Shown here: piece after piece, positions 635-22,912 of the stretch
Layout: each line of letters starts with the position of its first letter
How positions within the stretch are numbered: position 1 is the stretch's first letter
DNA from: a virus
IMG/VR virus record: IMGVR_UViG_3300018469_000001
Location: 64,001 to 100,981 of that record
Strand: one strand, 5' to 3'
Length of the DNA: 36,981 nt
The notes under the pieces: model-generated
Told to the model about the DNA's origin: nothing
Seen by the model: the letters and a program-made list of their open reading frames with translations, nothing else
Database searches by the model: none
Position numbers and translations under genes: made by a program

Positions 635-791
635 GGCCCACCTCGACCTCGACCGCTTCCAGGCCGGCCTATGGCCCCGCGCCGCCGGCGGCGACACCGA
701 AGCCATATCCGCCGTGCGGGCCATCATCGACCGCCGGGCGAAGCTGCTCGGGCTCGGCGAGCAAGGGGGGCCGGATGACCACGACGACTAG
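615..791 (+). CDS. Small helical phage protein (RRAKLLGL motif)
   Basis: This 58-residue protein starts at GTG 615 with GAGGGGG seven bases upstream. It reads DLDRFQAGLWPRAAGGD and then AIRAIIDRRAKLLGL-like text (AISAVRAIIDRRAKLLGL). A helix with [LV]-x-x-x-x-RRAKLLGL is common in short actinophage proteins encoded beside terminase and portal, and in some helix-turn-helix small terminase-like proteins. It overlaps the end of the gene before it and the start of the portal gene by 17 nt, so it is translationally coupled. It is too short to be a normal small terminase, and no function is assigned. Confidence 0.6.
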   Translation: MTSATTRAHLDLDRFQAGLWPRAAGGDTEAISAVRAIIDRRAKLLGLGEQGGPDDHDD

Positions 792-2757
792 GGCCCGCCG
801 CAACGGCCGGCCCGGCCCGGCCCCGGCCAGCCTGCCCACCGTCGAGGCCGCACTGCGCCGCGAGCTGCGCGTCACCCAGGACAACCTTGGGCTGCTCGCC
901 GCCCGGATGGAAGAGTCCGCCGCCCCCAACCCATACGTCCAGACGACCGAGGCCGGGATCGCCGACCTGGAGCGGGCCATCATCGCCGACCCCGGCTGGC
1001 GGATGTTCACCACGCTGGCCCAGCAGGAGTTCACCGAGGAAGGCCGCCGGCAGGTCCGCGCCGTGTGCCGGCTCATGGCCGTCGCCAACCCGCTGATCAA
1101 GCGCGGGCTGAACCTGCGGGCGTTCTACGTGTGGGGGCAGGGCTGCGAAATCGTCGCCCGCGCCAACGGCAAGGCCAAGTCAGACGGTGGCGGGGAAGAG
1201 CAGGACGTCCGGTCGGTTGTGTCCGCGTTCGTGATGGATCCGGCCAACCAGCGGGCGGTGTTCGGGCAGCAGGCCCGCGGCGAGATGGAACGGGCGCTGG
1301 GCACCGACGGCGAGCTGTACTGCGCACTGTTCACCCGGCCGCAGTCCGGATGGGTGCAAGCCCGCACGATCGTCGCCGGCGAAATCACCGAGATCATCAC
1401 CGACCCGGATGATGCGGCCACCCCGTGGTACTACCGGCGGTGCTGGACCCGGCGCACCTACGACGAGCGCGGCGTCCTGGCCGACGAACAGCAAGAGCTG
1501 CTGTATCCCGACGTCGACTACAAGCCCAGGTCGAAGCCGGCCACATTCGGCGGCACAAAGATCAAATGGGATGCGCCGATCGTCGCCGTCCAAGTCAACC
1601 GGCCGCTGGGCTGGCTGCGCGGCGTCCCCGACGCCTACGCGTCGATCAACTGGGCGCGGGCGTACAAAGAGTTCCTCGAGCAGTGGTCGTCGTTGATGCG
1701 CTCGCTGGCCCGGTTCGCGTGGCGGCTCACCGCCGAAGGCAAGAACCGCACCCAGGCCAAGACCGCGCTCGCCGCCGCAGCGGCCGGCGACACCTCCACC
1801 ACCCCCGGGCAGCGCAGCGACGTCGGCGGCATCGCCCTGACCCCGCTCAACGGCAACCTCGAGGCCATCCCCAAGACCGGCGCCACCATCGACGCCGAAT
1901 CGGGCAGGCCGCTGGCCATGATGGTCGCCGCCGGCCTGGACGTGCCCGTCACGATGCTGCTGGCCGACCCCGGCCAGACCGGCGCCCGCGCGACCGCTGA
2001 AACGCTGGACTGGCCCACCGAGCTGGCCATGATGGACCGCCGTTCCCTGTGGACGGCATTCCAGTCCCGGATCGTCTCCCACGTCATCACCGAGGCCGCC
2101 CGGGCGCCGAAGGGTCCGTTGCAGGGCAAGGTGAAACGTGACCCGGTCACCGACCGGGAAGTGGTGGAGCTGGCCGGCGACACCGACGACACCGTCGACA
2201 TCATCTGGCCCGACCTCGACGAGACCGACCCCAAGCAGGTGATCGACGCCGTTGTCGCCGCCGCCGGCACCGGAACCATGCCGCCCGAGCTGGTGCTCAG
2301 GCTGCTGTTGCAGGCGTTGGGCGTGCGGGAGCTGGACTCCATCCTCGACGAGATGGTCGACGAGCAGGGCGTCTTCCAGTGGCCGCAGGCCGCCCCGATC
2401 ACACCCGGGCAGCAGGCCGCCGACCTCGCCCGAGCAGGCCAGGATCCGGCCACCGCAGGCGAGCCCGGCCAGATGGGCCCCGACGGCCAACCGATACCCG
2501 ACGGCGGGCCCGGCCAGCCCGGCGGGCCGGCCGCACTTGCGGAGGTGCCCGGAGTGAGTACGGAAGCCGTAGCCCGCCAGGCCGACGCCGATTTCGGGCT
2601 GTTCGGCGGCAAGGGCGCAGACCAGGACGCCGACACCGACGGGCCGGGCGCCAATGTGGACGCCGAAGGTGAGCAGCTCGACGGCGAGCCGATCGGCGCC
2701 GGCGAGGCCGGCGAGAAACCCGCCGACATCTACGACCCCGAGTTCTTCACCATCTAG
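775..2757 (+). CDS. Portal protein
   Basis: The portal is the dodecameric DNA gate at one capsid vertex, through which terminase packages DNA and to which the neck attaches. The 660-residue product has the portal pattern: an N-terminal helical part ending RRQVRAVCRLMAVANPLIKRGLNLRAFYVWGQG, a beta-rich wing, the SINWARAYKEFLEQWSSLMRSLARFAWRL stem region and the GLDVPVTMLLADPGQTGARATAETLD crown stretch. From about residue 545 on there is a Pro/Gly/Asp-rich, probably disordered tail (MGPDGQPIPDGGPGQPGG) that makes it longer than most portals of this type. The ATG at 775 is preceded by AAGGGGGG. It follows terminase and precedes the giant gene by 18 nt. Confidence 0.93.
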   Translation: MTTTTRARRNGRPGPAPASLPTVEAALRRELRVTQDNLGLLAARMEESAAPNPYVQTTEAGIADLERAIIADPGWRMFTTLAQQEFTEEGRRQVRAVCRLMAVANPLIKRGLNLRAFYVWGQGCEIVARANGKAKSDGGGEEQDVRSVVSAFVMDPANQRAVFGQQARGEMERALGTDGELYCALFTRPQSGWVQARTIVAGEITEIITDPDDAATPWYYRRCWTRRTYDERGVLADEQQELLYPDVDYKPRSKPATFGGTKIKWDAPIVAVQVNRPLGWLRGVPDAYASINWARAYKEFLEQWSSLMRSLARFAWRLTAEGKNRTQAKTALAAAAAGDTSTTPGQRSDVGGIALTPLNGNLEAIPKTGATIDAESGRPLAMMVAAGLDVPVTMLLADPGQTGARATAETLDWPTELAMMDRRSLWTAFQSRIVSHVITEAARAPKGPLQGKVKRDPVTDREVVELAGDTDDTVDIIWPDLDETDPKQVIDAVVAAAGTGTMPPELVLRLLLQALGVRELDSILDEMVDEQGVFQWPQAAPITPGQQAADLARAGQDPATAGEPGQMGPDGQPIPDGGPGQPGGPAALAEVPGVSTEAVARQADADFGLFGGKGADQDADTDGPGANVDAEGEQLDGEPIGAGEAGEKPADIYDPEFFTI

Positions 2758-2775: not shown

Positions 2776-5700
2776 GTGGCTGCTCGCCGCAGTAAGTGGA
2801 ATCCGTCGCTGCACCCCAGGGACGCCCGAGGCCGGTTCACCCGCTCGTCAACCCGGGTGATGAAGCCCGCCGACACCAAACGGGCACGGTCAGCCACCCA
2901 GGGATTCCAGCCGGCCAAGATCGGCGGGGCTGGTGCGGCCGGCGGATGGCTGACCCGCAACGGCGGCGCCAAGCCCGCCCAGGCCGACACCGCGCTCGGC
3001 CGGTACCTGGCCGGCGGCTGGCGGGACACCAACACCGAGATCCGCCGGTCGAAGACGCCGCCGCCCGACGTGGCCGAAATCGACGCCGAGTTCGCCGGGC
3101 TGCCCGAAGACCTGGTGCTGCGCAGGCAGGTGCCGCTGGCCATGTTCGCGCACATCCCCGTCGACCAGCTCGTCGGCATGAAGGTCCGCGACGCCGCGTA
3201 CGCCTCCACCAGCATCGACCACCCGGAGGCCGGCCCGTCCGCCCCCGACGCGGTCACCCTGCACATCGCCGCCGCCGCAGGCACCCCCGCCTACGTGCAC
3301 GCCGACGCCGGGGAAATCCTGCTCGCCCGCGACACCGAGATCGCCATCGCCCGGGCCGAGCCCAACGGGCAGGGCGGCTGGGACCTGTACGGCGTCGTCA
3401 TCCCCAAGACGGCGGTAACCCGCGACCAGCCCGCCGCAGGCGATCGCGACCAGCCGGCCGGCGGCGACACGCCGACACCGGCCGAAGACGAGACCACCAC
3501 CCCGCCCGCAGGTGACACTGACACCGGCGATGAGGCTCCCCAAGCGCCGGCCGCAGCAGCCTCCGTGCCAGCCGGCGCCGCCGCCCCACCCGCCCGCCAG
3601 AGCGGACCGGGCGGCGAGCCCACCACCAGCCCGCCCGACACAGCAGGCGGTGGTGATGGCGGCCGCGGCGCCGCGGTCGGCGGACCGCGCGCCGCGGCCG
3701 ACCAGCCGCGCCCGAACCCGCGCGAGGACCCCGAAGGCTGGGCGCGGTCGTTGACCGACGCCGAGCTGGAGCGGTGGTCGGCCACACGCGGCGCGCTGCC
3801 CCGGGTCAAGAAGGCGATCGCCGCCGAGCAGGCCCGCCGCGCCGAGCAGGACCAGGGTGCGCAGACCCCGGCGGCGGGTACCCGTACGCCCGCCGCCGGC
3901 TCACTCGCAGCCCTCGACCCGCTCGACCGAGAACGGGTCCGCATCGCAGTCGAAGACCACGCCGGCCGCATCTTCCGCAACCCGCTCATCGGCGGCTCGA
4001 CAGACAACGTCGGCCGGTACGTCGCCGAGGGGCACCTCGGCGCGCTAACCGAACGGTACGGCCTGTCCCAGGTGTGGCGGGCAGTCGCGCAGACGGTGGA
4101 GGAACGCCCCGAGCTGCTCGAGCGGTCCGACGCCGACGCCGATCAGGGTGCGCGCGAACGCGGCGAGGCCGCCGAGCTGCTGTCCACCCAGGCGGCCGGG
4201 CAGGTCCGCGACGGCGACTTTGCCGCCGCGCTGGCCACCATCGACCAGGCCGAACGACTCGACCCCGACCACCGGGCAGGCGTTGGCCGAAGCTGGGACG
4301 AGCTACGCACGATCGTGGCCCGCCGCCAGGAGGAGACCAGCCGGAAGCCGGCCGGCTCTGCCACGCCCCGCGAATCTGTCGCCGGCCGCGCCCAGCTCGA
4401 CGCGGCCATCGAGTCCGGCACCTCTTCCACCGAGAAACTCGACGGCGGGGGCATCGCACAGTCCGTCGACCTGGTGACGTTCAACGACGGCACCCAGGCC
4501 GTGCGGAAGGTCACCAAAGACTCCAAGACCATCGAGCGGTCGGGGGTTGATCAGGCCGACGCCGAAGAGGTCACCGCCTTGATCGCCGCCGCGGCCGGCG
4601 CGAAAGTACCCGCGGTGCACCGGGCCGGCGACACCGAAACCCTGACCGCCTATGTGGACGGTCAGACCGGCATGGAAGCCATGTCGGTGCTCGGCCTCGG
4701 CGCGGCACACACCGAAAGCCTGCGTCTGGCCAACACCGACCCCGGCCGGCTACTCGGCCTGGTCGACGTGCTCACCGACAACCCGGACCGGCACACCGGC
4801 AACTGGATCATCGACCAGGCTGGCGACCCGGTCGGCATCGACCACGGCAACGCCTTCCTGTACTCGGGAGATCCCGGGTCGGCCGGCGACAACTCGTGGA
4901 AGCCGTTCGCCGCCCACTACATGCAGTGGGACGCAGCCACCGGTATGCCGTCCGGCTGGGCAGACAACGACCTCACCCCCGCCGACGTCCAGACCGTCAG
5001 GGAACGGCTGGCAGCGCTGCGCCCAGAGTTCGACCGGATGGGCCACGGAGACTGGCACGACTTCGCCATGGGCCGCCTCGACGCGGTCGGCGCCCACGCC
5101 ACCGGCGACCGCAACCGCATCGCAGACGGCGGCACCCCCGCCCCGGCAGGCACCCCCGGCCAGCCGGCCGGGGAAACCCCCGGACAGCGCATCGACCCGC
5201 CCACCGGCGGGGCGCTGGCCGGCCTCGACCCGCTGGACCGGGAACGGGTCCGGGTGGCCGTCGAAGACAAAGCGGCCACGATCTTCCGGACACCGTTCAT
5301 GGGCGGCTCCGAATCCAACGTCGCCCGGTACACCGCCGAAGGCCGCGAGCTGGCCGCGTTGACCGACCGGCACGGCCTGGCCACCATGGCCGCCGCCGTC
5401 CGGCAGATCATCGACCAGCGGCCCGGGCTGCTGCAGCGCTCCGACGCCGACGTCGAAGCGCACCGGCAGGCCCGCAGGCAGGCCGCCGAGGCCCGGGCCA
5501 ACACCGGCGCCGACCTGGCCGCCGCCGGCGACTTCACCGCCGCCCGCGCCGAGATCGACGCCGGGGAACGCATCGACCCGACGTGGGTATTCACCTCGCC
5601 GGGCGGGCCGCCGCTGAACTGGACTGCGGTCCGGGCGCTGGTCGACGACATGGAACGCGACCGGGCCGCCGCCGACGCGCCCGAACCGGCAGGCGATGCG

Positions 5701-8700
5701 ACGCCGGTCGCTGACCCCACCACGCCCGCGACCGACCCGGCCAGCCAGATGACCGCTACCGCGGCCAGCCCCCGACGCACCCTCCTGGCCGCAGACAGCG
5801 GCACGGACGGCGCCTTCCTGTATTTCGGGACAGGCGACCGGCCCACCGACGTCGGCGTACCCGTCTCGGCGATGCAGCTCGGCCGCGGCAACCGGTCCAC
5901 GGTCGTGTTCAACGACTATGTCGACAGCAAGCCGCAGGGCGGCGAGCACCGCATGGGCGACCGGGTCTGGCTGGCTCCGCTGCCCCCCGCGGATGTGGTG
6001 GACAGCTACGTCGCCGGGATCCGCGATGAACGCCGCGGCGGCCGCCCGCTCGACACCGGCCAGCCGGCCGCACCCCCCGCCGCGGCCGAGGTGCCCGCGG
6101 CGCCCGAGGCCGACCCGAATGGCGGCATGACCGTCGTCAAGACCCGCACCGGCTGGGCGGTCAAGGGCGGCGAACCGTTCTACCTCGCCGAGCGGAAGAC
6201 CAAACGCGCCGCCCAGCAGTGGATTGACGACGCGATGACCGCCCGGCGGGCGCTGGCCGACCACGAGGCGCGGAAGAAGCAGTCCGCCGCCGACCTGATG
6301 GAACGGGTCGGGCTCGAGGAGGTCCGCCCGTCGCAGCTCGCCGAGGGCGACGTGTTCACGTACAAGCTCGGCGGCGGGTACACCGCCACCGTGACCGCCG
6401 TCGAGAACCTCGGCAACGGCATGGTGATGGTCCGGCTCACCCCAGGCCCGGACGCACCCGACGACGCGATGCCTCACCTGCTGCTACGCGACTCCGACCC
6501 CGTGTTCCGGCTGCAGGACCCAGGTCGCGCCCAGGTGTGGCAGGACATGATCGCCGCCGACCGGGCCGAGGCGGCACGCGAGCTGGCAGACCTCGAGCGC
6601 GGCGACCAGGCCGGCGCACCCGCGCCGTCGGCTGGCACCCGTGTGTCCGTCGAAGACCTCGACGCCGACGAGCAGGGCCGCGCCCTGTCCGGGCAGACGT
6701 TCGCCCGCACCGCCCGCATCGACCAGGACCCCGACTCGACCCGCCTGCGGATGGTCCGCGCCCGCGTCGGCAACCGTGAGCTACGCGTGCACGACCCGGC
6801 CAGCGGCGACCAGCTCGGCACCATCACCGAGCAGCGCGACGGCGGCTGGACGGCCACCACCACCGACGGCCGCGAGATGGGCGCCGGCCTGGACGTGGAA
6901 GCCGCGATCGGCGCACTGGAGAACCCAGACCCGGCCGGCCCGGCAGACAGCGACGTGCCCGCCGCCGATCAGCCGGCCGCCGCCGGCCGGCCCGTCAGCG
7001 AACTGCAACGCGGCGACTACGTCACCGTCACCGGCCGGCCGCCCGGCGGAGAGCAGCAGACCACCCGCACCGGCTACGTGACGGCGGTCATGGCGACCGG
7101 CCGCAGCAACGAGCAGATGGTCAGCCTGTCCGAGTTCCCGATCGGCGCCGGCCGCACCGAACTGGTCATCGCCGCACCGACCGCGCCGACCGTGCCGGCC
7201 ACACCGCCGGCCGACCCCGATGTGGTGCTGTGGCGCAACCCGACCAACGGCCGTCCGGTGCCGAACCCTTCGCAGGTGTCGATCGTGCGCGGCCAGGTTG
7301 TGCGCGACACCCGGCGGGAGGAGGCGGTACGCGCTCAACTCGCCCAGCGGGCCGGGACAGATGCCCCTACCGGCCGGGACACCCCGGCAACCCCGCCGCA
7401 GGCCGGCGAGGGCGGCGGCTGGCCCGACCAGTCCGGTGGAGGCGACCCGCCCGACGGCGTCGAGCTGTACCCGATGGACCGGCTACGCGCCGAGCTGAAA
7501 TACGGGACGGACGGCTTCAACTACGGCCGGCCGTCCGGCTGGAAACTGCTGCTCAACCGGGCGGTCGAAGACCCGCGCACCCCGGAATGGATGGCGTCGA
7601 TCGCCGAGAACGGTATGCAGCCCATCCAGGTCACGTTCGACGACGACGTGCCCGGCTCGACCGGCCGCCAAGCCGAGCTGCACAACGGCAACCATCGGCT
7701 CGCGTTGGCGCTGCTCATGGGCGTCCAGGACATCCCAATCTCTAGCCGTGACCTGGAAAACTGGGACGACGAAGGCGGCAAGGTCGCGGTGCGGCTCGGC
7801 GGGTCGCCGGTCACCGACATGCCCGACGGCGCCGCCGACGTGATCGCGCGCGCGCAGGCCATCGTCGCCCGCCGGCGGCAGGCCGACGCGGCGCTGAACG
7901 CCGACACCCCGGGTGAGGCCGGGACCGCTGACACTCCCGCGCCCGCGGCTGGGCCGCCCGAGCAGCTCGACCTGGCCGGAGGCGCAACCCCGTTCGACGC
8001 GTCTCGCACCGAAGTGGGACTGCCCGAGCGGCCACAGGTGGGCAGGGAGCGGGCGATCGCCGCCACCCAGCAGCTCGGCCTGTTCGCCTCCGACGAACGG
8101 GAGATGGACGGCCAGGTGGGGCTGCTCGACGCCCTGCTGAACATGCCCGCCGGTGACACCGCCGGGCCGCCGCCGGACGCCCCGCCCCGGCCGCTGCCCG
8201 AGGCGCCCGGCCAGGACAACGCAGGGGAAGAGCTGCCCGCCGAACCCACCTCGATCGTCCCCGACGACCTCAGCAACTGGTCGGACGAGCAGCTCGCCGA
8301 CCTGTTCCGCGACGTGTCCGGCGTCGAGTCCGTCGACCAGCTCGACGAGCCCGGGCTGCAGCGCATCGCCGACGAGTGGGACCGCCGCGAGCAGGCCATG
8401 GCCGACCTCGTCGCGACGGTGCCGGACGACCTCACCGCGCTGGGCGACGGCGACGTCGAAACCCTGTACGCCCGGCTGACCGGCGAGCTGGGCACCCTGG
8501 ACCACGACGCGGTCCGCCGCGTCGAGGCCGACCTCGACCGGCGCACCGCCGAGCAGGCAGCCGAAGCTGGGAACGCTCCCAAGCGTGCGTTGCTGGCCCG
8601 GCCGGTCGCCGACCTGACCGACGAAGAGATTGAGACCGCCGCCGGCTACGCGGCCGACCTCGGCGACGAGCCCGCCATCGTGCGCGTGTTCGCCGAGTGG

Positions 8701-10629
8701 GAACGCCGCGACACCGCCCGGGAGGCAGCCCAGGCCGCCGCACAGGCCGCGCAGGCCGTCCGGGAGCAGGAAGCCCACGCCCAGGCTGTACGCGACGCAG
8801 AGGCCGCCACACAGGCCGCCGCCGAACGGGCCGCCCAGGCACGGCAGGCAGCCCGCACCGACGCCATGATCGCAGCCCAGGCCGCATCGGTCATCCCGCA
8901 GCCGGTCGACCGGGAAATCCGCGACGCCGCCCGGGTGCTCGGCCCCGACGGGCTGCGCCGCCTGTACGGCGACCCGCAGGTAGACGAGTGGCTGGCCGGC
9001 GTGCCCGGCGACCCGGCCGACGCGCCCGACTCGGTCGTGGCCACCGCGCTCGGCAACGGCGTCATGCGGCTCGAGCCCAGGCAGCGGCTGCGGGCGTTCG
9101 ACGCCGCCGCCGACGTCGAAACCGGCGACATGGCCGGCAGGTCCGACAAAGAGCTGCTCGACATCATCACCGACGGTGTGATGGCCACCGGCGACGACCG
9201 GCAACAGGCCAAGGCGCGGGGCCGGGTAGCGCACCGGGAGCGGACCCGCCGCGCCATCGAGCAGGAGCGGTTCAAGGGCCGCCGGGCGTTCTCCGAGTGG
9301 CTGGCCCGGGCCCGCGTCGACAACCCGGCCGACCTGACCGACGCCGAACTGGAGACCGCCCCCGGCGTGGTCGCCGCACTGTCCGACGACGATGACCCGG
9401 CGCTCGCCGGGCGGCTGGCCGATCTCCGCGCCGAAGCTGACCGGCGGATGGCGTCTGCCCAGCAGCGCGCCGACGACCTGGCCGCCGGCCCGGCCGGCCC
9501 GGCCCGGCTGGCCAACCCCGTCGAACATCTGGCCCGGCTGCAACGCATGGTCGAGGGCTACGGCAGCAGCGGCGAGGCTCGCGACGCCGCCGACCGGCTG
9601 CGCCGGGCCCGCGCCGTCACGTTCGGGCTGGGCGAGGACGCCACCGATAAGGACATCAACACCGCCGCCCGCAAGGACCCGCGGCCGCTACCGGACCAGG
9701 CCGCGCAGATCATCGCCTGGTACCGGCATTACGGCCGGTTCGCCGACCTGCCCGACGACCTCCCCGACTACCGGCAGTGGCTGCGCGGCCCGGCCGACGA
9801 AGACGTACCCGACACCCCGGAGCCGCTGCCCGCCGCGAACGTGTCCAAACCCGACGAGGTGTGGGACCAGATCAAGGCCAACGCCCAGCAGGAGTTCCAA
9901 GCCGACCAGTACGAGACCGGCCGCCGGCTGCTACGTGCCATCGGCCGCGCCTACCGGGTACCAGTAGAAGACGACATCCCGGCCACCCTCGAGGGGCTGA
10001 CCGAACTGCAGCGCCGGGTCGGCGCGGCGCTCAACGCCGACCAGCGCACCCCCCGGCAACGGGCCGGGTTTCTGCTGGCCGAGTTCCGCCGCCTCGCCGC
10101 CGAGGACGGCATCGACCCGGCCGACACCCTGCGGTACGGACCGCCCGACAAGGCCGGCCGCACACCGGCCCGGGCCAGCTTCCGCACCTCCACCCCGGAG
10201 CAGGAGCAGCGCATCGACGCCCTGGTCGCCCGCGGCTGGGACTGGCTCGACGCGTACGCCGAAGTCCACGGCGCCGACTCCGACGCGCTGCGCCGCGAAC
10301 GGGCCCGCGGCGTCTCTGGCGGGTCAGAGAAGGCGATGCGCCAGCAGTACGCCGAATGGGTGGCCATGCAGGCCAAAGAGGCGGAGGCCGCCACCGCCGG
10401 GCACATGCTGACCAAGAAAGCCGAGACCCGCGGCGTGGACGTCGTCAAGCTGTTCTCCGGACCGTGGTCGACCGCCCGCGCCAACGCGTCAGAGGAGCTG
10501 CTGCGCTGGTGGGCGGAACACCCGCGGATGACCTACGCCGAGTGGAAAGCGATGCTCGCCGGCGGGTCCGACGCCCGGGCCGCTCGAGAGAGGATGATCG
10601 GGGCAGGGAAGGGGAACGAGTTCGCATGA
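2776..10629 (+). CDS. Giant polyvalent-type protein: ADP-ribosyltransferase, PI3/4-kinase-like and ParB-like domains (2617 aa)
   Basis: The start is GTG 2776 behind GGAGAGGGGG. Residues 13-22 read HPRDARGRFT, a tag common at the start of phage head-associated proteins. Residues 75-200 look like an ADP-ribosyltransferase: R116/R117, S144-T145-S146 and catalytic-type E180. Residues 376-520 and 812-965 are two copies of one helical domain (LDPLDRERVR). Between them, at 540-785, is a PI3/4-kinase-like domain with candidate ATP lysine K578, loop D671-R672-H673-T-G-N676 and metal D689-H-G. Small SH3-like pieces start near 1184 and 1405. A ParB-like domain spans 1563-1680 with HNGNHR at 1636-1641. 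An Ala/Gln coiled coil covers 1983-2035, and a helical C-terminal module ends the protein. Linkers are Pro/Ala-rich. The position between portal and MuF suggests a virion protein delivered with DNA (inference). Domain calls rest on motifs only. Confidence 0.85.
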   Translation: MAARRSKWNPSLHPRDARGRFTRSSTRVMKPADTKRARSATQGFQPAKIGGAGAAGGWLTRNGGAKPAQADTALGRYLAGGWRDTNTEIRRSKTPPPDVAEIDAEFAGLPEDLVLRRQVPLAMFAHIPVDQLVGMKVRDAAYASTSIDHPEAGPSAPDAVTLHIAAAAGTPAYVHADAGEILLARDTEIAIARAEPNGQGGWDLYGVVIPKTAVTRDQPAAGDRDQPAGGDTPTPAEDETTTPPAGDTDTGDEAPQAPAAAASVPAGAAAPPARQSGPGGEPTTSPPDTAGGGDGGRGAAVGGPRAAADQPRPNPREDPEGWARSLTDAELERWSATRGALPRVKKAIAAEQARRAEQDQGAQTPAAGTRTPAAGSLAALDPLDRERVRIAVEDHAGRIFRNPLIGGSTDNVGRYVAEGHLGALTERYGLSQVWRAVAQTVEERPELLERSDADADQGARERGEAAELLSTQAAGQVRDGDFAAALATIDQAERLDPDHRAGVGRSWDELRTIVARRQEETSRKPAGSATPRESVAGRAQLDAAIESGTSSTEKLDGGGIAQSVDLVTFNDGTQAVRKVTKDSKTIERSGVDQADAEEVTALIAAAAGAKVPAVHRAGDTETLTAYVDGQTGMEAMSVLGLGAAHTESLRLANTDPGRLLGLVDVLTDNPDRHTGNWIIDQAGDPVGIDHGNAFLYSGDPGSAGDNSWKPFAAHYMQWDAATGMPSGWADNDLTPADVQTVRERLAALRPEFDRMGHGDWHDFAMGRLDAVGAHATGDRNRIADGGTPAPAGTPGQPAGETPGQRIDPPTGGALAGLDPLDRERVRVAVEDKAATIFRTPFMGGSESNVARYTAEGRELAALTDRHGLATMAAAVRQIIDQRPGLLQRSDADVEAHRQARRQAAEARANTGADLAAAGDFTAARAEIDAGERIDPTWVFTSPGGPPLNWTAVRALVDDMERDRAAADAPEPAGDATPVADPTTPATDPASQMTATAASPRRTLLAADSGTDGAFLYFGTGDRPTDVGVPVSAMQLGRGNRSTVVFNDYVDSKPQGGEHRMGDRVWLAPLPPADVVDSYVAGIRDERRGGRPLDTGQPAAPPAAAEVPAAPEADPNGGMTVVKTRTGWAVKGGEPFYLAERKTKRAAQQWIDDAMTARRALADHEARKKQSAADLMERVGLEEVRPSQLAEGDVFTYKLGGGYTATVTAVENLGNGMVMVRLTPGPDAPDDAMPHLLLRDSDPVFRLQDPGRAQVWQDMIAADRAEAARELADLERGDQAGAPAPSAGTRVSVEDLDADEQGRALSGQTFARTARIDQDPDSTRLRMVRARVGNRELRVHDPASGDQLGTITEQRDGGWTATTTDGREMGAGLDVEAAIGALENPDPAGPADSDVPAADQPAAAGRPVSELQRGDYVTVTGRPPGGEQQTTRTGYVTAVMATGRSNEQMVSLSEFPIGAGRTELVIAAPTAPTVPATPPADPDVVLWRNPTNGRPVPNPSQVSIVRGQVVRDTRREEAVRAQLAQRAGTDAPTGRDTPATPPQAGEGGGWPDQSGGGDPPDGVELYPMDRLRAELKYGTDGFNYGRPSGWKLLLNRAVEDPRTPEWMASIAENGMQPIQVTFDDDVPGSTGRQAELHNGNHRLALALLMGVQDIPISSRDLENWDDEGGKVAVRLGGSPVTDMPDGAADVIARAQAIVARRRQADAALNADTPGEAGTADTPAPAAGPPEQLDLAGGATPFDASRTEVGLPERPQVGRERAIAATQQLGLFASDEREMDGQVGLLDALLNMPAGDTAGPPPDAPPRPLPEAPGQDNAGEELPAEPTSIVPDDLSNWSDEQLADLFRDVSGVESVDQLDEPGLQRIADEWDRREQAMADLVATVPDDLTALGDGDVETLYARLTGELGTLDHDAVRRVEADLDRRTAEQAAEAGNAPKRALLARPVADLTDEEIETAAGYAADLGDEPAIVRVFAEWERRDTAREAAQAAAQAAQAVREQEAHAQAVRDAEAATQAAAERAAQARQAARTDAMIAAQAASVIPQPVDREIRDAARVLGPDGLRRLYGDPQVDEWLAGVPGDPADAPDSVVATALGNGVMRLEPRQRLRAFDAAADVETGDMAGRSDKELLDIITDGVMATGDDRQQAKARGRVAHRERTRRAIEQERFKGRRAFSEWLARARVDNPADLTDAELETAPGVVAALSDDDDPALAGRLADLRAEADRRMASAQQRADDLAAGPAGPARLANPVEHLARLQRMVEGYGSSGEARDAADRLRRARAVTFGLGEDATDKDINTAARKDPRPLPDQAAQIIAWYRHYGRFADLPDDLPDYRQWLRGPADEDVPDTPEPLPAANVSKPDEVWDQIKANAQQEFQADQYETGRRLLRAIGRAYRVPVEDDIPATLEGLTELQRRVGAALNADQRTPRQRAGFLLAEFRRLAAEDGIDPADTLRYGPPDKAGRTPARASFRTSTPEQEQRIDALVARGWDWLDAYAEVHGADSDALRRERARGVSGGSEKAMRQQYAEWVAMQAKEAEAATAGHMLTKKAETRGVDVVKLFSGPWSTARANASEELLRWWAEHPRMTYAEWKAMLAGGSDARAARERMIGAGKGNEFA

Positions 10630-13031: not shown

Positions 13032-14111
13032 GTGGCTGTCACCAACCGGACCCTGCGACTCTTGCGGGCGCTGCGCGTCGACATCGGCGACCAGGCCGAC
13101 GACGTCGTCCGCGACCTGACCGCCGCATGGGTCAAGACGTGGAACACCCTGTCCGGCGAGTGGGACCGGGCGCTGGCCGACGCCGTCGCCCTGTACGTGC
13201 GCACCGGCGCCTGGCCGCCGCCGTGGCACCTCGCCCGCCTGGAGCGGCTCGTCGCCGCCCAGCAGCAGACCGCCCAGGCGCTCGCCGCCCTGGCAGCCAC
13301 CGCCAACACCACCGCAGGGTCCGGCGCCACCGAAGTGGTTGCCGCCACCGCGGCCGCCGAGCCCGCCATCATGGCCTCGCAGCTCCCGGCCAGCCTGGCC
13401 GCCGCCGCGGCGGAAACGTACGCGGCGAACGTGGCGCCGTCCGCGCTGGAGTCGATCGCGTTGCGGGCCCGCCAGCAGATCCACGCCGGCACCTGGCCGC
13501 TCACCGAGCAGGCGGTCGAGGCGATGCGCCGGTCCCTGATCACCGGCGTGGCCACCGGCGCCCACCCGACCGAGGCGGCCGCCGACATGCTTCGCCAGGT
13601 CGAGGGGGTTTTCAACGGCGGACTCACCCGGGCGATCAACATCGCCAGGACGGAAATGCTCGACGCCTACCGGGCCACGTCCGCCGCGGTGCACGAGGCC
13701 AACGCCGACGTGCTCGACGGCTGGACCTGGATCGCCACCCTCGACCGGCGTACCTGCCCGAGCTGCTGGGCGATGCACGGCACCCACCATCCGCTAGAAC
13801 AGGCCGGCCCATGGGACCACCAGCAGGGCCGATGCGCCCGCATGCCGAAGGTCAAATCGTGGGCCGAGCTGGGCATCCCCGGCGTCGAAGACGACGACCT
13901 CACCCCGGACGCCGAAAAGGTGTTCACCGCGCTCCCCCTCCACGAGCAGCTCGCGGTGATGGGGCCGGGTCGGCTCGCGCTGCTCAACACCGGCCGCGTC
14001 CAGTGGGCGGACCTGGCGGTACGCCGCGACAACCAGGCGTGGCGTCCGTCGTACGTGCCCCGCCCGGTGCGGGAGCTGGAGCGGCTCGCCAACCGGCGGC
14101 AGGTGGCCTAA
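13032..14111 (+). CDS. MuF-like minor head protein
   Basis: MuF-type proteins sit inside the portal vertex and are needed for head morphogenesis or injection. The product is 359 residues. The first 200 are helical and Ala-rich. The signature lies late: ARTEMLDAYRAT, GWTWIATLDRRTCPSCWAMHG, HP, then GPWDHQQGRCARMP, with C242/C245 and the following His and Cys forming the usual MuF C-terminal motif. GTG 13032 is preceded by GAGGGGGCGCGG. Here MuF is separated from the portal by the giant gene and the small-gene run, where many phages have the two adjacent. A hairpin follows the stop. Confidence 0.9.
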   Translation: MAVTNRTLRLLRALRVDIGDQADDVVRDLTAAWVKTWNTLSGEWDRALADAVALYVRTGAWPPPWHLARLERLVAAQQQTAQALAALAATANTTAGSGATEVVAATAAAEPAIMASQLPASLAAAAAETYAANVAPSALESIALRARQQIHAGTWPLTEQAVEAMRRSLITGVATGAHPTEAAADMLRQVEGVFNGGLTRAINIARTEMLDAYRATSAAVHEANADVLDGWTWIATLDRRTCPSCWAMHGTHHPLEQAGPWDHQQGRCARMPKVKSWAELGIPGVEDDDLTPDAEKVFTALPLHEQLAVMGPGRLALLNTGRVQWADLAVRRDNQAWRPSYVPRPVRELERLANRRQVA

Positions 14112-14847: not shown

Positions 14848-14864
14848 CACCCCGGGGGTTGCTC

Positions 14865-15515
14865 GTGCTGCCCATCACCTCGATCTACGACCTACAGGTC
14901 GGCGACCTCGGCTTCGCCTCCATCAAAGGCCGGGCCGGCGCCGGCGTCCTCGCCGGCCAGACTGCCATCGACCTCGCCGCGCTGCTCCGCGGCCGCCGCG
15001 TCGAAAACGCCGGCTGGATCACCCACGCCTTCATCGTCGCCAGCATCCCCGGCGACGGCACCGCCGAGCTGGTCGAAGCCATGCCCGGCGGCGCCCGCAC
15101 CGTCTGGACCGAGGGCGGCGGCGTCGACCACAACGCCTGCCGGATCGGCGCCGGCTTCGCCTACGTGCGGCTACCCGCCGACGCCGGCCCACCCGGCTGG
15201 CAGACCGCCGCCGGGAAAGCCGCACTGAAAATGCGCGGCACCCCGTACGGCTTCGCCCAGTACGCCGCGCTGGCCGCGCTCACCCTCACCGGCGGCGACG
15301 CCGCCAACCACCGCGGCCCGCTCGCCCGCTACGTCAACCGTCGCAGCCCCGCCACCGGCCGACCCGTCCAGGTCATCTGCTCCCAGCTCGTCGACGAGGC
15401 GCTGCGCCTGGCCGGCGTCGCCCTGTTCGCCGACGGCCGGCCGCCGCAGTACGTCACCCCAGGCGGCCTGTTCTGGCAGGCCGCCCGGCTCGGCGACGTG
15501 TGCATCTGCTGCTGA
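14865..15515 (+). CDS. Permuted papain-fold (NlpC/P60-like, YiiX type) peptidase or amidase
   Basis: This 216-residue protein starts at GTG 14865, six bases after GGGGG. Its pattern is that of permuted NlpC/P60-like enzymes: VGDLGFASIKG near the start, then GWITHAFIV with candidate catalytic H54, then RGTPYGFAQYAALA, and VICSQLVDEALRLAG with candidate nucleophile C172. In this group the His precedes the Cys, as here. Such enzymes cleave peptide or lipid-linked amide bonds; in phages a cell-wall role is often assumed. It sits between head genes rather than tail genes, directly behind the divergent promoter element, and the natural substrate cannot be told from sequence. Confidence 0.7.
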   Translation: MLPITSIYDLQVGDLGFASIKGRAGAGVLAGQTAIDLAALLRGRRVENAGWITHAFIVASIPGDGTAELVEAMPGGARTVWTEGGGVDHNACRIGAGFAYVRLPADAGPPGWQTAAGKAALKMRGTPYGFAQYAALAALTLTGGDAANHRGPLARYVNRRSPATGRPVQVICSQLVDEALRLAGVALFADGRPPQYVTPGGLFWQAARLGDVCICC

Positions 15516-19139: not shown

Positions 19140-21290
19140 ATGTCCAACAAGCGCAAGACGCGCATCCCCGGCCGGTACGAGCGGCCGGCCCACCTGCGCG
19201 CCCCCCTGGGCGACACGCTCGGCGAGGCGGGCATCCGCGACGGCTTCGTCTCAGCGCTGCGCATCAACGCCGCAGGCCGCCGCACGGTGGCCACCGTCGA
19301 ATCCGACGACGACCACGACCGGGAGCTGGAAGAGGCTCTCGCCGATCTCGACGACAACCAGGTCGACGCGCTCGGCGTGCTCGCCGACACCGACGAGGCC
19401 AGCCGGTTCGACAAGCTCGCCGGCAAGCTGGCCGGCAAGGGCGTGAAGGACCCCAAGGCGCTGGCCGCGCACATCGGCCGCAAGAAGTACGGCAAGACGG
19501 CCATGGCGAAGATGGCCGCCGCCGGCCGCAAACGCAAGGGCAAGAAGACCGGCGGCACCAGCGAGGCGTTCGCCGAGGCCGCCGCCGGCGGCATCCACGA
19601 GGCCACGCCGGGCGCCCAGCCGGGCACCTACGTCATCGACGTGATCAAGTCGGGGTGGAATAAGGCCAGGAGCCGCCACTACCCGGCTGAGGTGCTCGAG
19701 CGTGACGTTCCCAAGGTGTACCCGCGCGGCACGCAGATGTTCATCGATCATCCGACGCAGTCGGAGGCCGACGACCGGCCGGAACGGTCCGTGTCGACGC
19801 TGGCCGCGGTGTTCACCGATACCCCGTGGGCGGTCAAGGAAGACGACGGCAGCGTGACGATGCGCACCACCGCCCGCGTGTTCACGCCCTGGCAGCCGCT
19901 GATCGGCGAGGCGTGGCCACACATCGGAGTGTCGATCAACGGCATCGGCAAGGGCGACCACGGGCAACGCGAGGGCCACTACGGGCTGCTGATGGAAGAG
20001 CTGACCCACGGGGCGTCCGTCGACTTCGTCACGAAGCCCGGGGCGGGCGGCCGGGTGGTCGGGCTGCTCGAGTCGGCTGCGGCGGCGGCTGACTCGCCGG
20101 CCGGCCGGGCCGCGGTGCTGCGCGAGGCCGGGTCGTTGGGCGCGTTCGCCGAGTCCCGCATCCACCTCGGCTTCACCCAGCTCGCCGACGAAATGTACGG
20201 CGACGGCCGGCTCACCCGCGACGAGCGGATCACCATGTCGGGGGCGATCGGCGACGCCCTGGCCGCGTTCGTCAGCCGGCTCGATGCTGACGCGCCGCAG
20301 CTCTACCAGCGGTCCCGGTGGGCCGACCCGGACGGGCAGGAGACGACCGAGTCCGCCGCGGTGGCCACCCGCGAGGCCACCGCCGAGCAGACCCGGCAGG
20401 CGATCAGCCGGGCGCTGTCCGACCAGTACGCGACCGCACCCGCCCAGCCAGGCGGGCCGGCGCACTACTGCTGGTACCGCGACCACGATGAGGGCCGCGG
20501 GCTGGTGTGGTTCGACGCCTCTACCGCCGACACCGGGCACAACACCTGGCAGCAGTCCTACCAGATGGCCGCAGACGGCGAAGTTGAGCTGCTCGGCGGC
20601 CGCATCGAGGTCATCCCCGAGGTCGTGTACCGGCCGGCGCCGCCGGCCGACGGCGGGGGCGACACGTACGAGGCCGACCCCGGCGCCGGGGTGGCCCATC
20701 ACCGCATCACCGAGACCACCGACGGCGACCAGCCGGCGGGTAGCAACCCGGGCCCCGCGCCCGAGACCACCAAGGAGAGCGACATGGGCGAGAAGACCGC
20801 CGACGTCGTGGCGCGCGAGGCCGCCGAGGCCCTGGCCGCTACGAGCACGAAGGAGCGCGACGAGGCTCGCGCCGAGCTGGCCCGCTACCGGGCCGGCGAG
20901 ACTGCCCGGCCGATCCTGGATCGGCTGCTGACCGAATCGGCGCTGCCCGCGGCCGCGTACGACAAGGTGCGGGCCGACTTCACCGCCGACCGGCTGCCGC
21001 TGACCGAGTCCGGTGCGCTGGACGAGACCCGGCTGCGGACGCTGGCCGAGGCGTCGATCACCGCCGAGGCCGCGTACGTGGCGAAGCTCCAGGAGGAGAA
21101 CGGCGCGGGCCGGGTCGCTGGCATGGGTGCGACGCCGGTGCGGGCCGGGTCGGCGCTGCCGGCGTCGTTCGGCGGGGTCACCCGGGAGGCCGACGTTCCG
21201 GACAAGGCCGTCCAGGAGGCGCTAGCCGAAATCTACAAGCGGCGCGGGCTGGTGCCCGAGGCCGCGATCGCCGCCGGCCGCGGACGCTGA
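19140..21290 (+). CDS. Capsid maturation protease fused to scaffold
   Basis: This protease cleaves the scaffold and capsid precursors during head maturation. ATG 19140 follows GGGAGG, and the product is 716 residues. Residues 100-135 carry AAHIGRKKYGKTAMAKMAAAGRKRK, a basic tag seen in many actinophage proteases. Residues 155-310 are the protease fold, with FIDHPTQSE (H204) and GVSINGIGKG (S265) as candidate catalytic His and Ser. Residues 440-500 hold a WYRDHDEGRGLVWFD / TWQQSYQM insert domain also known from other phage proteins. From residue 549 the scaffold-like part begins: a charged helical stretch that has its own start (see separate entry). The fused protease-scaffold layout is like lambda C/Nu3. 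Confidence 0.88.
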   Translation: MSNKRKTRIPGRYERPAHLRAPLGDTLGEAGIRDGFVSALRINAAGRRTVATVESDDDHDRELEEALADLDDNQVDALGVLADTDEASRFDKLAGKLAGKGVKDPKALAAHIGRKKYGKTAMAKMAAAGRKRKGKKTGGTSEAFAEAAAGGIHEATPGAQPGTYVIDVIKSGWNKARSRHYPAEVLERDVPKVYPRGTQMFIDHPTQSEADDRPERSVSTLAAVFTDTPWAVKEDDGSVTMRTTARVFTPWQPLIGEAWPHIGVSINGIGKGDHGQREGHYGLLMEELTHGASVDFVTKPGAGGRVVGLLESAAAAADSPAGRAAVLREAGSLGAFAESRIHLGFTQLADEMYGDGRLTRDERITMSGAIGDALAAFVSRLDADAPQLYQRSRWADPDGQETTESAAVATREATAEQTRQAISRALSDQYATAPAQPGGPAHYCWYRDHDEGRGLVWFDASTADTGHNTWQQSYQMAADGEVELLGGRIEVIPEVVYRPAPPADGGGDTYEADPGAGVAHHRITETTDGDQPAGSNPGPAPETTKESDMGEKTADVVAREAAEALAATSTKERDEARAELARYRAGETARPILDRLLTESALPAAAYDKVRADFTADRLPLTESGALDETRLRTLAEASITAEAAYVAKLQEENGAGRVAGMGATPVRAGSALPASFGGVTREADVPDKAVQEALAEIYKRRGLVPEAAIAAGRGR
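20784..21290 (+). CDS. Scaffold protein from an internal in-frame start
   Basis: An ATG at 20784 in the protease frame is preceded by AAGGAGA at 20772-20778, with five bases between, which is as good as any start in the window. It would give a 168-residue protein: MGEKTADVVAREAAEALA, then a coiled coil KERDEARAELARYRAGE, and a basic end GGVTREADVPDKAVQEAL / EIYKRRGLV. Helical, charged and C-terminal in the protease gene, this is what a scaffold looks like. In lambda, the Nu3 scaffold is made from the C gene in exactly this way. Production of the short form is inference from the ribosome binding site. Confidence 0.65.
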   Translation: MGEKTADVVAREAAEALAATSTKERDEARAELARYRAGETARPILDRLLTESALPAAAYDKVRADFTADRLPLTESGALDETRLRTLAEASITAEAAYVAKLQEENGAGRVAGMGATPVRAGSALPASFGGVTREADVPDKAVQEALAEIYKRRGLVPEAAIAAGRGR

Positions 21291-21718: not shown

Positions 21719-22912
21719 ATGACGACCACGACACTGGCCCGCACGCACTTCACTTCCACTGTGGAGGGCATCGACGCCCGCACCACCGACATCCGCACCC
21801 TGTTCGGCGGCGGCATGACACCCGTCGCCGAGTCGACCCGCAAGACCGGCATTGACTTCTACGGCCGCCGCGAGTGGGACTCGATGCTGCTGGAGGCCGA
21901 GCAGTTCATGGAGACCATCAGGTCGGGCAGCCGCGGCGTGCACGTCTTCACCGAGGCCATGTCCACCGACCTGTTCCCCCAGCTCTTCGGCGACTCGCTC
22001 GACCGGCAGCTCTACGGGGCGTACACCGCGGCGCCGGTCACCTGGCGCAACTACGCCCGACGCGCCATGGTCAACGACTTCCGGGACGTGAAGCGGTTCG
22101 CCCTGTCCGGGATCCGTGGTCTGCTGACCCGCACCCCGGAGCTGTCCGAGCACGAGCGGCGCACCACCGACGAGGCCGTCTACACCTACGCGGTCAACAA
22201 GTACGAGGCCGGCTTCGGCTTGTCTTTCGAGGCCATGGTCAACGACGACCTGGACGCGTTCGCCCGGCTCCCCCGCGACCTGGCGCAGTCCGCCGTCGAC
22301 TCGGAGGAGTACTTCGTGACCGGCCTGTGGGCCGGCGCGTCCGGGCTGAACACAACCAACTTCACCGTCGACAACGACAACATCCTCACCGGCAACCCGG
22401 CGCTGACCAGGGCATCGCTCCAGGCTGCGATCACGAAGCTGATGCAGCGGGTCGACGAGCGGGGCAACCCGATCCCGGTCACCGCGGTCGAGCTGGTGGT
22501 CGGCCCGGGTCTGGCCCTACAGGCACAGGAGATCATCTCGGCGACCGAGTACCGGTCGGTCGACGGCTCCGGCAACGTCACGATCATCACCGGGAACGGC
22601 ATCGCGGCGAACCTGCGGGTGTCGGTCAATTTCTGGCTGCCGTCCGTGGCGACCACCGCGAACGCCGACACCACCTGGGCGGTCTTCGCCAACCCCGACT
22701 CGTCCGGCCGCCCCGCCCTGGAAATCGGTTTCCTGAGGGGTTACGAGCAGCCCGGCCTGTACGAGAAGGTGCCGGACATGCGGCGCATCGGCGGCGGCGA
22801 AGTGCCGTGGAGCTTCAACCACTCCCAGCAGGAGAAAAAGGTCCAGCACATCTTCGGCGGCACCTTCGTCGACCCGCGCATGGTGATCGGGTCCAACGGA
22901 TCGGAGTCCTGA
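21719..22912 (+). CDS. Major capsid protein
   Basis: The main shell protein has 397 residues, a usual length for HK97-fold subunits, and starts at ATG 21719 behind GAGAGG. The middle shows the expected mix of helix and long loops: TDLFPQLFGDSLDRQLYGAYTAAPVTWRNYARR, VNDFRDVKRFALSGIRGLL, then TYAVNKYEAGFGLSFEAMVNDDLDAFARLPRDLAQSA. It ends in GFLRGYEQPGLYEKV and VQHIFGGTFVDPRMVIGSNG, the typical capsid C-terminus with G-x-x-x-V-D-P-R. The GFGLSFEAMVNDDLDAF block is reminiscent of Mu-type capsid subunits. It lies directly after the decoration gene and before the accessory connector genes. Confidence 0.92.
   Translation: MTTTTLARTHFTSTVEGIDARTTDIRTLFGGGMTPVAESTRKTGIDFYGRREWDSMLLEAEQFMETIRSGSRGVHVFTEAMSTDLFPQLFGDSLDRQLYGAYTAAPVTWRNYARRAMVNDFRDVKRFALSGIRGLLTRTPELSEHERRTTDEAVYTYAVNKYEAGFGLSFEAMVNDDLDAFARLPRDLAQSAVDSEEYFVTGLWAGASGLNTTNFTVDNDNILTGNPALTRASLQAAITKLMQRVDERGNPIPVTAVELVVGPGLALQAQEIISATEYRSVDGSGNVTIITGNGIAANLRVSVNFWLPSVATTANADTTWAVFANPDSSGRPALEIGFLRGYEQPGLYEKVPDMRRIGGGEVPWSFNHSQQEKKVQHIFGGTFVDPRMVIGSNGSES

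What the first reader, a model, noticed from the sequence alone, without database searches (positions are those of the whole stretch)
2776..10629. Giant multi-domain protein between portal and MuF gene: candidate polyvalent effector
One gene of 2617 codons fills a fifth of the window and carries at least three domains with enzyme or binding motifs (ADP-ribosyltransferase-like, PI3/4-kinase-like, ParB-like) plus several short unassigned modules and long Pro/Ala linkers. Large proteins of this kind encoded beside portal and MuF were described as polyvalent proteins thought to enter the host with phage DNA (established idea from comparative genomics by Iyer, Aravind and co-workers). The pairing of an ADP-ribosyltransferase and a lipid/protein kinase-like fold in one chain is the exciting part and I do not know a described example with this order.
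Basis: partly seen in the sequence, partly recalled or inferred. Interest (0 to 1): 0.85.

Follow-up and report, generated by a model that had tools for sequence, protein, structure and literature searches.

The report
Giant phage ADP-ribosyltransferase–kinase polyvalent protein
A phage of (probably) an actinobacterium carries, right behind its portal gene, one 2,617-residue protein that joins an ADP-ribosyltransferase, a kinase and a ParB-like domain to a tail-end domain shared with minor head proteins, so it is probably packed in the virus head and delivered with the DNA; it belongs to a known class of 'polyvalent' phage proteins, but the enzyme pairing recurs in unrelated phages and I found no description of it.

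Summary
ORF 2776-10629 (2,617 aa) is coding throughout, starts 18 nt after the portal gene, and lies upstream of a separate MuF gene (13032-14111). Residues 2-217 are an ADP-ribosyltransferase (ART) of the C3/VIP2 kind with R117, S144 and E180 present. Residues 552-781 are a kinase whose five active-site residues are kept in 12-13 of 13 relatives. Residues 1567-1657 are weakly ParB-like. The last 139 residues are a domain found at the extreme C-terminus of all 85 complete proteins examined, mostly Phage_min_cap2 or VG15 minor capsid proteins encoded after portals. ART and kinase occur in one chain, same order, in at least three further elements, each directly behind a portal (L135, L110, L140), and in reverse order in L124, with MuF. 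The kinase is also fused to portal, MuF and Phage_min_cap2 proteins. Best reading: a head-packaged polyvalent effector. Packaging, injection and both enzyme activities are inferred. It is a new variant of a known kind: its ART is the R-S-E type that Iyer et al. 2017 said was absent from genuine polyvalent proteins, and its kinase is not the type they described.

The parts
2776..10629 (+). giant multi-domain protein gene, GTG start, 2617 aa
   Evidence: long relatives L002 and L135
2759..2768 (+). AGGAGAGGGG, ribosome-binding-site-like stretch before the GTG start
   Evidence: sequence read
775..2757 (+). portal protein gene, directly upstream
   Evidence: phrog_10963 E 1.5e-113; portal homologues in Microcystis, Brevibacterium and Arthrobacter phages
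2797..2838 (+). N-terminal motif KWNPSLHPRDARGRF (aa 8-21 region); HPRD..GRF invariant in 10 of 10 ART-bearing relatives and also at the N-terminus of other giant phage proteins
2779..3426 (+). ADP-ribosyltransferase domain, aa 2-217, R117, S144 and E180 present
   Evidence: profile of relatives E 5e-104; relative L020 passes PF03496 with 50.8 bits; AF2 pLDDT 85.7; Foldseek C3 exoenzymes E 4e-7; sequence profile to C3stau2 2.9e-8 and VIP2 1.5e-7
3904..4365 (+). duplicated module, first copy (about aa 377-530)
   Evidence: aligns with second copy, score 351 against a shuffled maximum of 73; also in L135
4429..5118 (+). PI3/PI4-kinase-like kinase domain, aa 552-781; K578, E597, D671, N676, D689
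   Evidence: profile E 1.6e-86; relatives pass PF00454; AF2 pLDDT 87.6; Foldseek kinases E 4e-6; active site conserved
5215..5730 (+). duplicated module, second copy (about aa 814-985)
6124..6543 (+). unassigned module aa 1117-1256, conserved in L002
   Evidence: 48.6% identity, E 1.4e-32
6658..7368 (+). unassigned short modules aa 1295-1531, present in another order in L002
7474..7746 (+). ParB-like domain, aa 1567-1657, GNHR motif from aa 1638
   Evidence: phrog_21912 E 7.4e-5; profile with Microbacterium ParB-like proteins to solved ParB E 1.7e-4; single sequence gives no PF02195 match
7963..10626 (+). conserved C-terminal region aa 1730-2617, with LTDxEL-type repeats
   Evidence: about 41% identity to L002 and L135, partly in L013
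10210..10626 (+). C-terminal domain (CTD) aa 2479-2617 shared with minor capsid proteins
   Evidence: at the extreme C-terminus of 85 of 85 complete proteins; 66 proteins are Phage_min_cap2 + CTD, 7 VG15 + CTD
13032..14111 (+). separate MuF (minor head) protein gene
   Evidence: PF04233 E 4e-9

Best explanation
The gene encodes a polyvalent effector built into the phage head. It is made late with the portal and head proteins. Its C-terminal domain, shared with minor capsid proteins, and possibly the N-terminal HPRD..GRF motif, hold it at the portal end of the head. It is then released into the new host with the DNA, where its separate modules act early: the N-terminal ART modifies host proteins using NAD+, the kinase phosphorylates a host protein or another substrate, and the ParB-like module may bind or nick DNA. 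The Pro/Ala linkers separate modules that are swapped between phages. Shown: gene, position, domain homology, catalytic residues present, module exchange, and recurrent fusion of the same domains to portal and minor-head proteins. Inferred: packaging, injection, activity and targets.
For: Terminase, portal, giant gene and MuF lie in one head module. The CTD ends 85 of 85 complete proteins; most are Phage_min_cap2 or VG15 minor capsid proteins, and 41 of 90 CTD-only proteins have a recognised portal gene directly upstream in the stretch held. All four ART+kinase proteins found by the local profiles (window, L135, L110, L140) follow a portal gene by 3-76 nt. The kinase is fused to a portal (L126), to MuF with an ART (L124) and to Phage_min_cap2 (L121, pMLP1). 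ARTs at the same post-portal position are fused to VG15 in Arthrobacter phages. A minimal 427-aa version, HPRD + ART + CTD, follows a portal in L020. Kinase residues: K in 12/13 and E, D, N, D in 13/13 relatives. Folds confirmed. T4 Alt and MuF toxins are the precedents cited in PMC5512222 and PMC5576092.
Against: No virion proteomics is at hand for this phage, known only as a virus record. The chain has no recognisable MuF, portal or Phage_min_cap2 domain of its own, and the function of the CTD is known only by association. The S of the ART triad is kept in only 6 of 10 relatives, so the N-terminal ART may be structural or inactive in some (the window has it). Kinase PDB matches have low TM-scores (about 0.32-0.43), so the substrate class cannot be read from them. 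A 2,617-residue chain would have to unfold or be cleaved to leave through a tail, which is untested.
Confidence: 0.72

Rival explanations
1. The protein is mainly structural: a long internal head or portal-vertex protein needed for assembly, in which the ART and kinase folds have become binding or spacer modules with little or no catalysis.
For: The best-conserved part is the C-terminal 890 residues and the CTD of minor capsid proteins. The ART serine is lost in 4 of 10 relatives. L013 has the C-terminal body but no ART or kinase.
Against: The kinase active site is invariant or nearly so in 13 relatives, the window ART keeps R, S and E, and modules are gained and lost as expected of effectors.
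Confidence: 0.15
2. It is a polymorphic toxin used by the lysogen or phage against rival bacteria, released by lysis or delivered by phage-like particles, not an aid to infection.
For: MuF toxins are proposed to act this way in temperate phages (PMC5576092), and the prophage ART Bxa has antibacterial activity (PMC11699363). Related kinases occur in other carriers in Micromonosporaceae (L104).
Against: No immunity gene was identified (not searched for systematically), and the effector domains are internal or N-terminal, not a C-terminal toxin tip. Whether this phage is temperate is unknown.
Confidence: 0.08
3. It is synthesised in the infected cell and acts there late (for example on host or assembly factors) without being packaged.
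For: Iyer et al. 2022 note that post-portal ARTs could instead counter immune processes aimed at packaging components (PMC9503650).
Against: Fusion of the same domains to portal, MuF and Phage_min_cap2 proteins.
Confidence: 0.05

Closest known systems
Polyvalent proteins of phages and conjugative elements (Iyer et al. 2017, PMC5512222)
   Same: Large phage-encoded chain with unrelated enzyme domains, encoded among late head genes, ART and ParB-type domains, variable module order.
   Different: [quoted passage not shown] kinase is PI3/PI4-kinase-like, not the STY-type kinase without C-lobe they describe; no zincin HExxH motif; ParB-like part not shown to be DdrB-like.
MuF polymorphic toxins (Jamet et al. 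2017, PMC5576092) and actinophage 'MuF-like/ART fusion' proteins
   Same: Same genomic position and ART cargo; relative L124 carries a MuF-kinase-ART chain.
   Different: No MuF domain in this chain; MuF is a separate gene at 13032-14111.
Micromonospora phage pMLP1 post-portal protein (L008:6423-8366)
   Same: Kinase 40% identical over the aligned domain, gene directly after the portal.
   Different: 647 aa, Phage_min_cap2 plus kinase only; no ART, no CTD.
Arthrobacter phages Tuck and VResidence 'capsid maturation protease and VIP2-like ART toxin'
   Same: Post-portal gene with an ART of the same broad family.
   Different: ART at the C-terminus behind a VG15 domain; about 680 aa; no kinase.
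Mycobacterium phage Onyinye 'ADP-ribosyltransferase' (1340 aa, BFVD A0A6B9L6W7)
   Same: A protein named as an ART whose predicted structure also matches the window kinase (E 3e-6): a lead for the same pairing in a named phage.
   Different: Order, position and residues were not examined here.
T4 Alt
   Same: R-S-E type ART packaged and injected (as described in PMC5512222).
   Different: No kinase described for it; not compared by sequence here.

Membership tests
Polyvalent proteins | two or more domains of unrelated biochemical activity in one chain | tested here: met
   ART, kinase and a ParB-like domain
Polyvalent proteins | encoded by a phage or conjugative element near late virion genes | tested here: met
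   terminase-portal-giant-MuF order
Polyvalent proteins | packaged and injected with the DNA | not testable with these tools
   only indirect: CTD and fusions in relatives
Polyvalent proteins | ART of the Tox-ART-HYD2 (H-Y-D) clade, as stated for the known members (typical, not strictly required) | tested here: not met
   R117/S144/E180 and best matches to C3 and VIP2 ARTs; literature statement
Polyvalent proteins | zincin-like metallopeptidase (common, not universal) | tested here: not met
   no HExxH in the chain
R-S-E clade ADP-ribosyltransferases (C3/VIP2) | fold match and R, S, E residues | tested here: met
R-S-E clade ADP-ribosyltransferases (C3/VIP2) | transferase activity | not testable with these tools
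   needs purified protein
PI3/PI4-kinase-like kinases | kinase fold with Lys, Glu, catalytic-loop Asp/Asn and metal Asp | tested here: met
   K578, E597, D671, N676, D689; model pLDDT 87.6, Foldseek kinases
PI3/PI4-kinase-like kinases | Pfam PF00454 at gathering score | tested here: inconclusive
   window 17.9-21.7 bits, below 27.1; relatives L135, L110, L140, L121 and pMLP1 pass
MuF polymorphic toxins | N-terminal MuF domain in the same chain | tested here: not met
   no match in the chain
Phage capsid maturation protease | protease domain | tested here: not met
   phrog_1752 match covers only the C-terminal part; no protease in Pfam; a separate protease-like gene is at 19140-21290
ParB/Srx superfamily | significant family match and GxHR-type motif | tested here: inconclusive
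   motif GNHR present; profile E 1.7e-4, single sequence no PF02195 match

The most novel reading that the evidence does not exclude
A head-packaged dual-modification device that recurs across phages of actinobacteria: an ART and a kinase of one chain are delivered together and modify the same host machine (for example the transcription or translation apparatus) within the first minutes of infection, with a C-terminal minor-capsid domain as a general cargo anchor onto which such modules are loaded.
Probability: 0.22. Interest if true: 0.78.

Novelty: new variant of a known kind. Interest (0 to 1): 0.56.

Why it matters
It identifies a kinase family with a preserved active site that phages fuse to their portal, MuF and minor capsid proteins, alone or with an ART, and a C-terminal domain that may serve as a general anchor for cargo in the head. 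If the anchor works, it gives a direct handle to test which proteins phages inject, and a way to find such cargo in genomes. It also widens the polyvalent class to ART and kinase types that its founding survey did not list.

Tried and rejected
Capsid maturation protease (label carried by the nearest annotated C-terminal homologues): rejected; the match is confined to the C-terminal part and no protease domain was found. MuF domain in the chain: none. Zincin peptidase: no HExxH. Assembly artefact or chance ORF: rejected. Plasmid relatives of the kinase: none. Single-sequence scan of viral contigs with the kinase found nothing; alignments were needed. PF02195 in the phage's own record: no match. 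Profile of the CTD region against solved structures: only doubtful helical matches, not used. Papers naming this ART-kinase pair: none found in six searches of the open library; subscription papers are not covered.

Full report
OBSERVATION. The window is bases 64001-100981 of a 100,981-base IMG/VR virus record. The gene at 2776-10629 is a single open frame of 2,617 codons with a GTG start. Third-position GC stays near 0.9 in its frame along nearly its whole length, and shuffled windows never gave a stop-free frame over 603 codons. The terminase ends at window 451, the portal is 775-2757, and the giant gene starts 18 nt later behind AGGAGAGGGG. A true MuF gene, 13032-14111, follows after 2.4 kb; then come a protease-like gene (19140-21290), the major capsid gene (21719-22912) and the tape measure gene (30385-34323).

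ART. Residues 2-217 form a domain conserved in ten phages. The minimal relative L020 passes Pfam PF03496 with 50.8 bits (cut-off 23.4). The family profile finds C3stau2 (2.9e-8) and VIP2 (1.5e-7) among solved structures. The AlphaFold2 model has pLDDT 85.7, and Foldseek places it with C3 exoenzymes at E 4e-7 and TM 0.5-0.6. R117, S144 and E180 are present; across ten sequences R is kept in 9, E in 9 and S in 6. So the fold is well supported, and activity is likely for the window protein but not for all relatives.

KINASE. Residues 552-781. The window sequence alone scores below the PF00454 cut-off, but the closest relative L135 (37.7 bits), L110, L140, L121 and pMLP1 pass it. The model has pLDDT 87.6. 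PDB matches are atypical and protein kinases (RIO2, PknA/PknB, PRPK, COQ8, macrolide phosphotransferases), E from 4e-6, but with TM-scores of only about 0.32-0.43; sequence profiles prefer PI4-kinases weakly (E 0.003). Lys, Glu, catalytic Asp, Asn and metal Asp are kept in 12-13 of 13 sequences. The substrate (protein, lipid or small molecule) cannot be decided.

OTHER MODULES. A module of about 150 residues is duplicated on both sides of the kinase (377-530 and 814-985; alignment score 351 against at most 73 for shuffles). A ParB-like stretch with GNHR is supported by phrog_21912 (E 7.4e-5) and by a small profile matching a solved ParB at 1.7e-4, but not by PF02195 on the single sequence. Eight Pro/Ala-rich linkers lie mostly between the modules. 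No HExxH motif occurs.

C-TERMINAL DOMAIN. Residues 2479-2617 match the C-termini of Streptomyces, Mycobacterium and Microcystis phage proteins annotated as capsid maturation protease or MuF-like minor capsid protein. A scan of viral contigs found 110 stretches encoding relatives and kept 80 loci. In the proteins of all fetched loci, the domain ends at the extreme C-terminus in 85 of 85 complete cases; 66 have a Phage_min_cap2 domain in front, 7 VG15, and others MuF or portal. This is the best argument that the giant protein is a head component. The same call finds a recognised portal gene directly upstream of 41 of 90 CTD-only proteins; other portal families or contig ends would not be counted.

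RECURRENCE. L002 (2,202 aa) keeps the ART and the C-terminal 890 residues, with shuffled middle modules and no kinase. L135 (2,896 aa) has ART, two kinases and the C-terminal domain, behind a portal of the same family. L110, in a Micromonosporaceae genome behind terminase and portal genes, has the HPRD motif, three ART copies (one passing PF03496, two by the local profile) and a kinase passing PF00454. L140 has ART, a second weaker ART copy, and kinase, behind a portal. L124 has MuF, kinase, ART and a papain-fold deamidase-like domain. L126 is a portal-kinase fusion and L121 Phage_min_cap2-kinase. In a sample of 301 Micromonosporaceae genomes the kinase profile matched 13. The pairing is therefore a recurrent one and not a single curiosity.

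LITERATURE. Iyer et al. 2017 (PMC5512222) defined polyvalent proteins and said that R-S-E (Alt/VIP2) ARTs are not found in genuine members, whose ARTs are H-Y-D; their kinases are a STY-type group lacking the C-lobe. Iyer et al. 2022 (PMC9503650) report Alt/VIP2 ARTs fused to MuF and encoded near portals. Jamet et al. 2017 (PMC5576092) describe MuF toxins, 14% of them putative ARTs. None of the passages read describes an ART with a PI3/PI4-type kinase; absence from an open-access library is weak evidence.

MECHANISM AND VERDICT. Most likely the protein is packed at the portal end of the head through its C-terminal domain and delivered with the DNA to modify host targets by ADP-ribosylation and phosphorylation. 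Position, homology, residues and fusions are shown; packaging, delivery, activity and targets are inferred. It fits the polyvalent class by its two main tested features, with two atypical enzyme types, hence a new variant of a known kind. The host is inferred to be an actinobacterium from GC (72%) and relatives, not shown.

Noticed in passing
L131 (IMGVR_UViG_3300037359_000088, record G336:C1:18407-28609, minus strand): An open frame of 5,913 codons with a MuF domain and about six copies of the kinase, directly after a portal gene.
   Followed up: partly
L127, L128, L130: Tandem arrays of small stand-alone kinase genes (three to four in a row) in phage contigs.
   Followed up: no
L145-L154, L156, L159: Open frames of over 3,000 aa (cut by the flank) starting with WNPxxHPRDSKGRF; most carry CTD copies, often in tandem, in the interior.
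   Followed up: partly
L066 (record G002): Another giant protein (frame of 3,949 codons) with the CTD at its end and a HELAH zincin motif.
   Followed up: partly
L164:1-6330 (Microbacterium phage Pumpernickel gp82): A hypothetical protein of about 2,235 aa ends in the same kinase.
   Followed up: partly
L003:3516-5327, L005:4473-5954 and similar: Proteins annotated 'capsid maturation protease' show Phage_min_cap2 or VG15 plus the CTD, and no protease domain in Pfam; the label looks propagated.
   Followed up: partly
window 2797-2838 and relatives: HPRD..GRF motif shared by the N-termini of very different giant phage proteins and, in a HPRDRKGQF form, by a portal-like/ART open frame (L155): candidate localisation or cleavage signal.
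   Followed up: partly
G000:C1:61021-61767 (L163:7021-7767): A separate ParB-like gene lies upstream of the terminase (phrog_620 E 2.3e-18).
   Followed up: no
window 14859-15515: Small head-module gene matching phrog_1128, named enoyl-CoA hydratase-like (E 3.3e-7).
   Followed up: no
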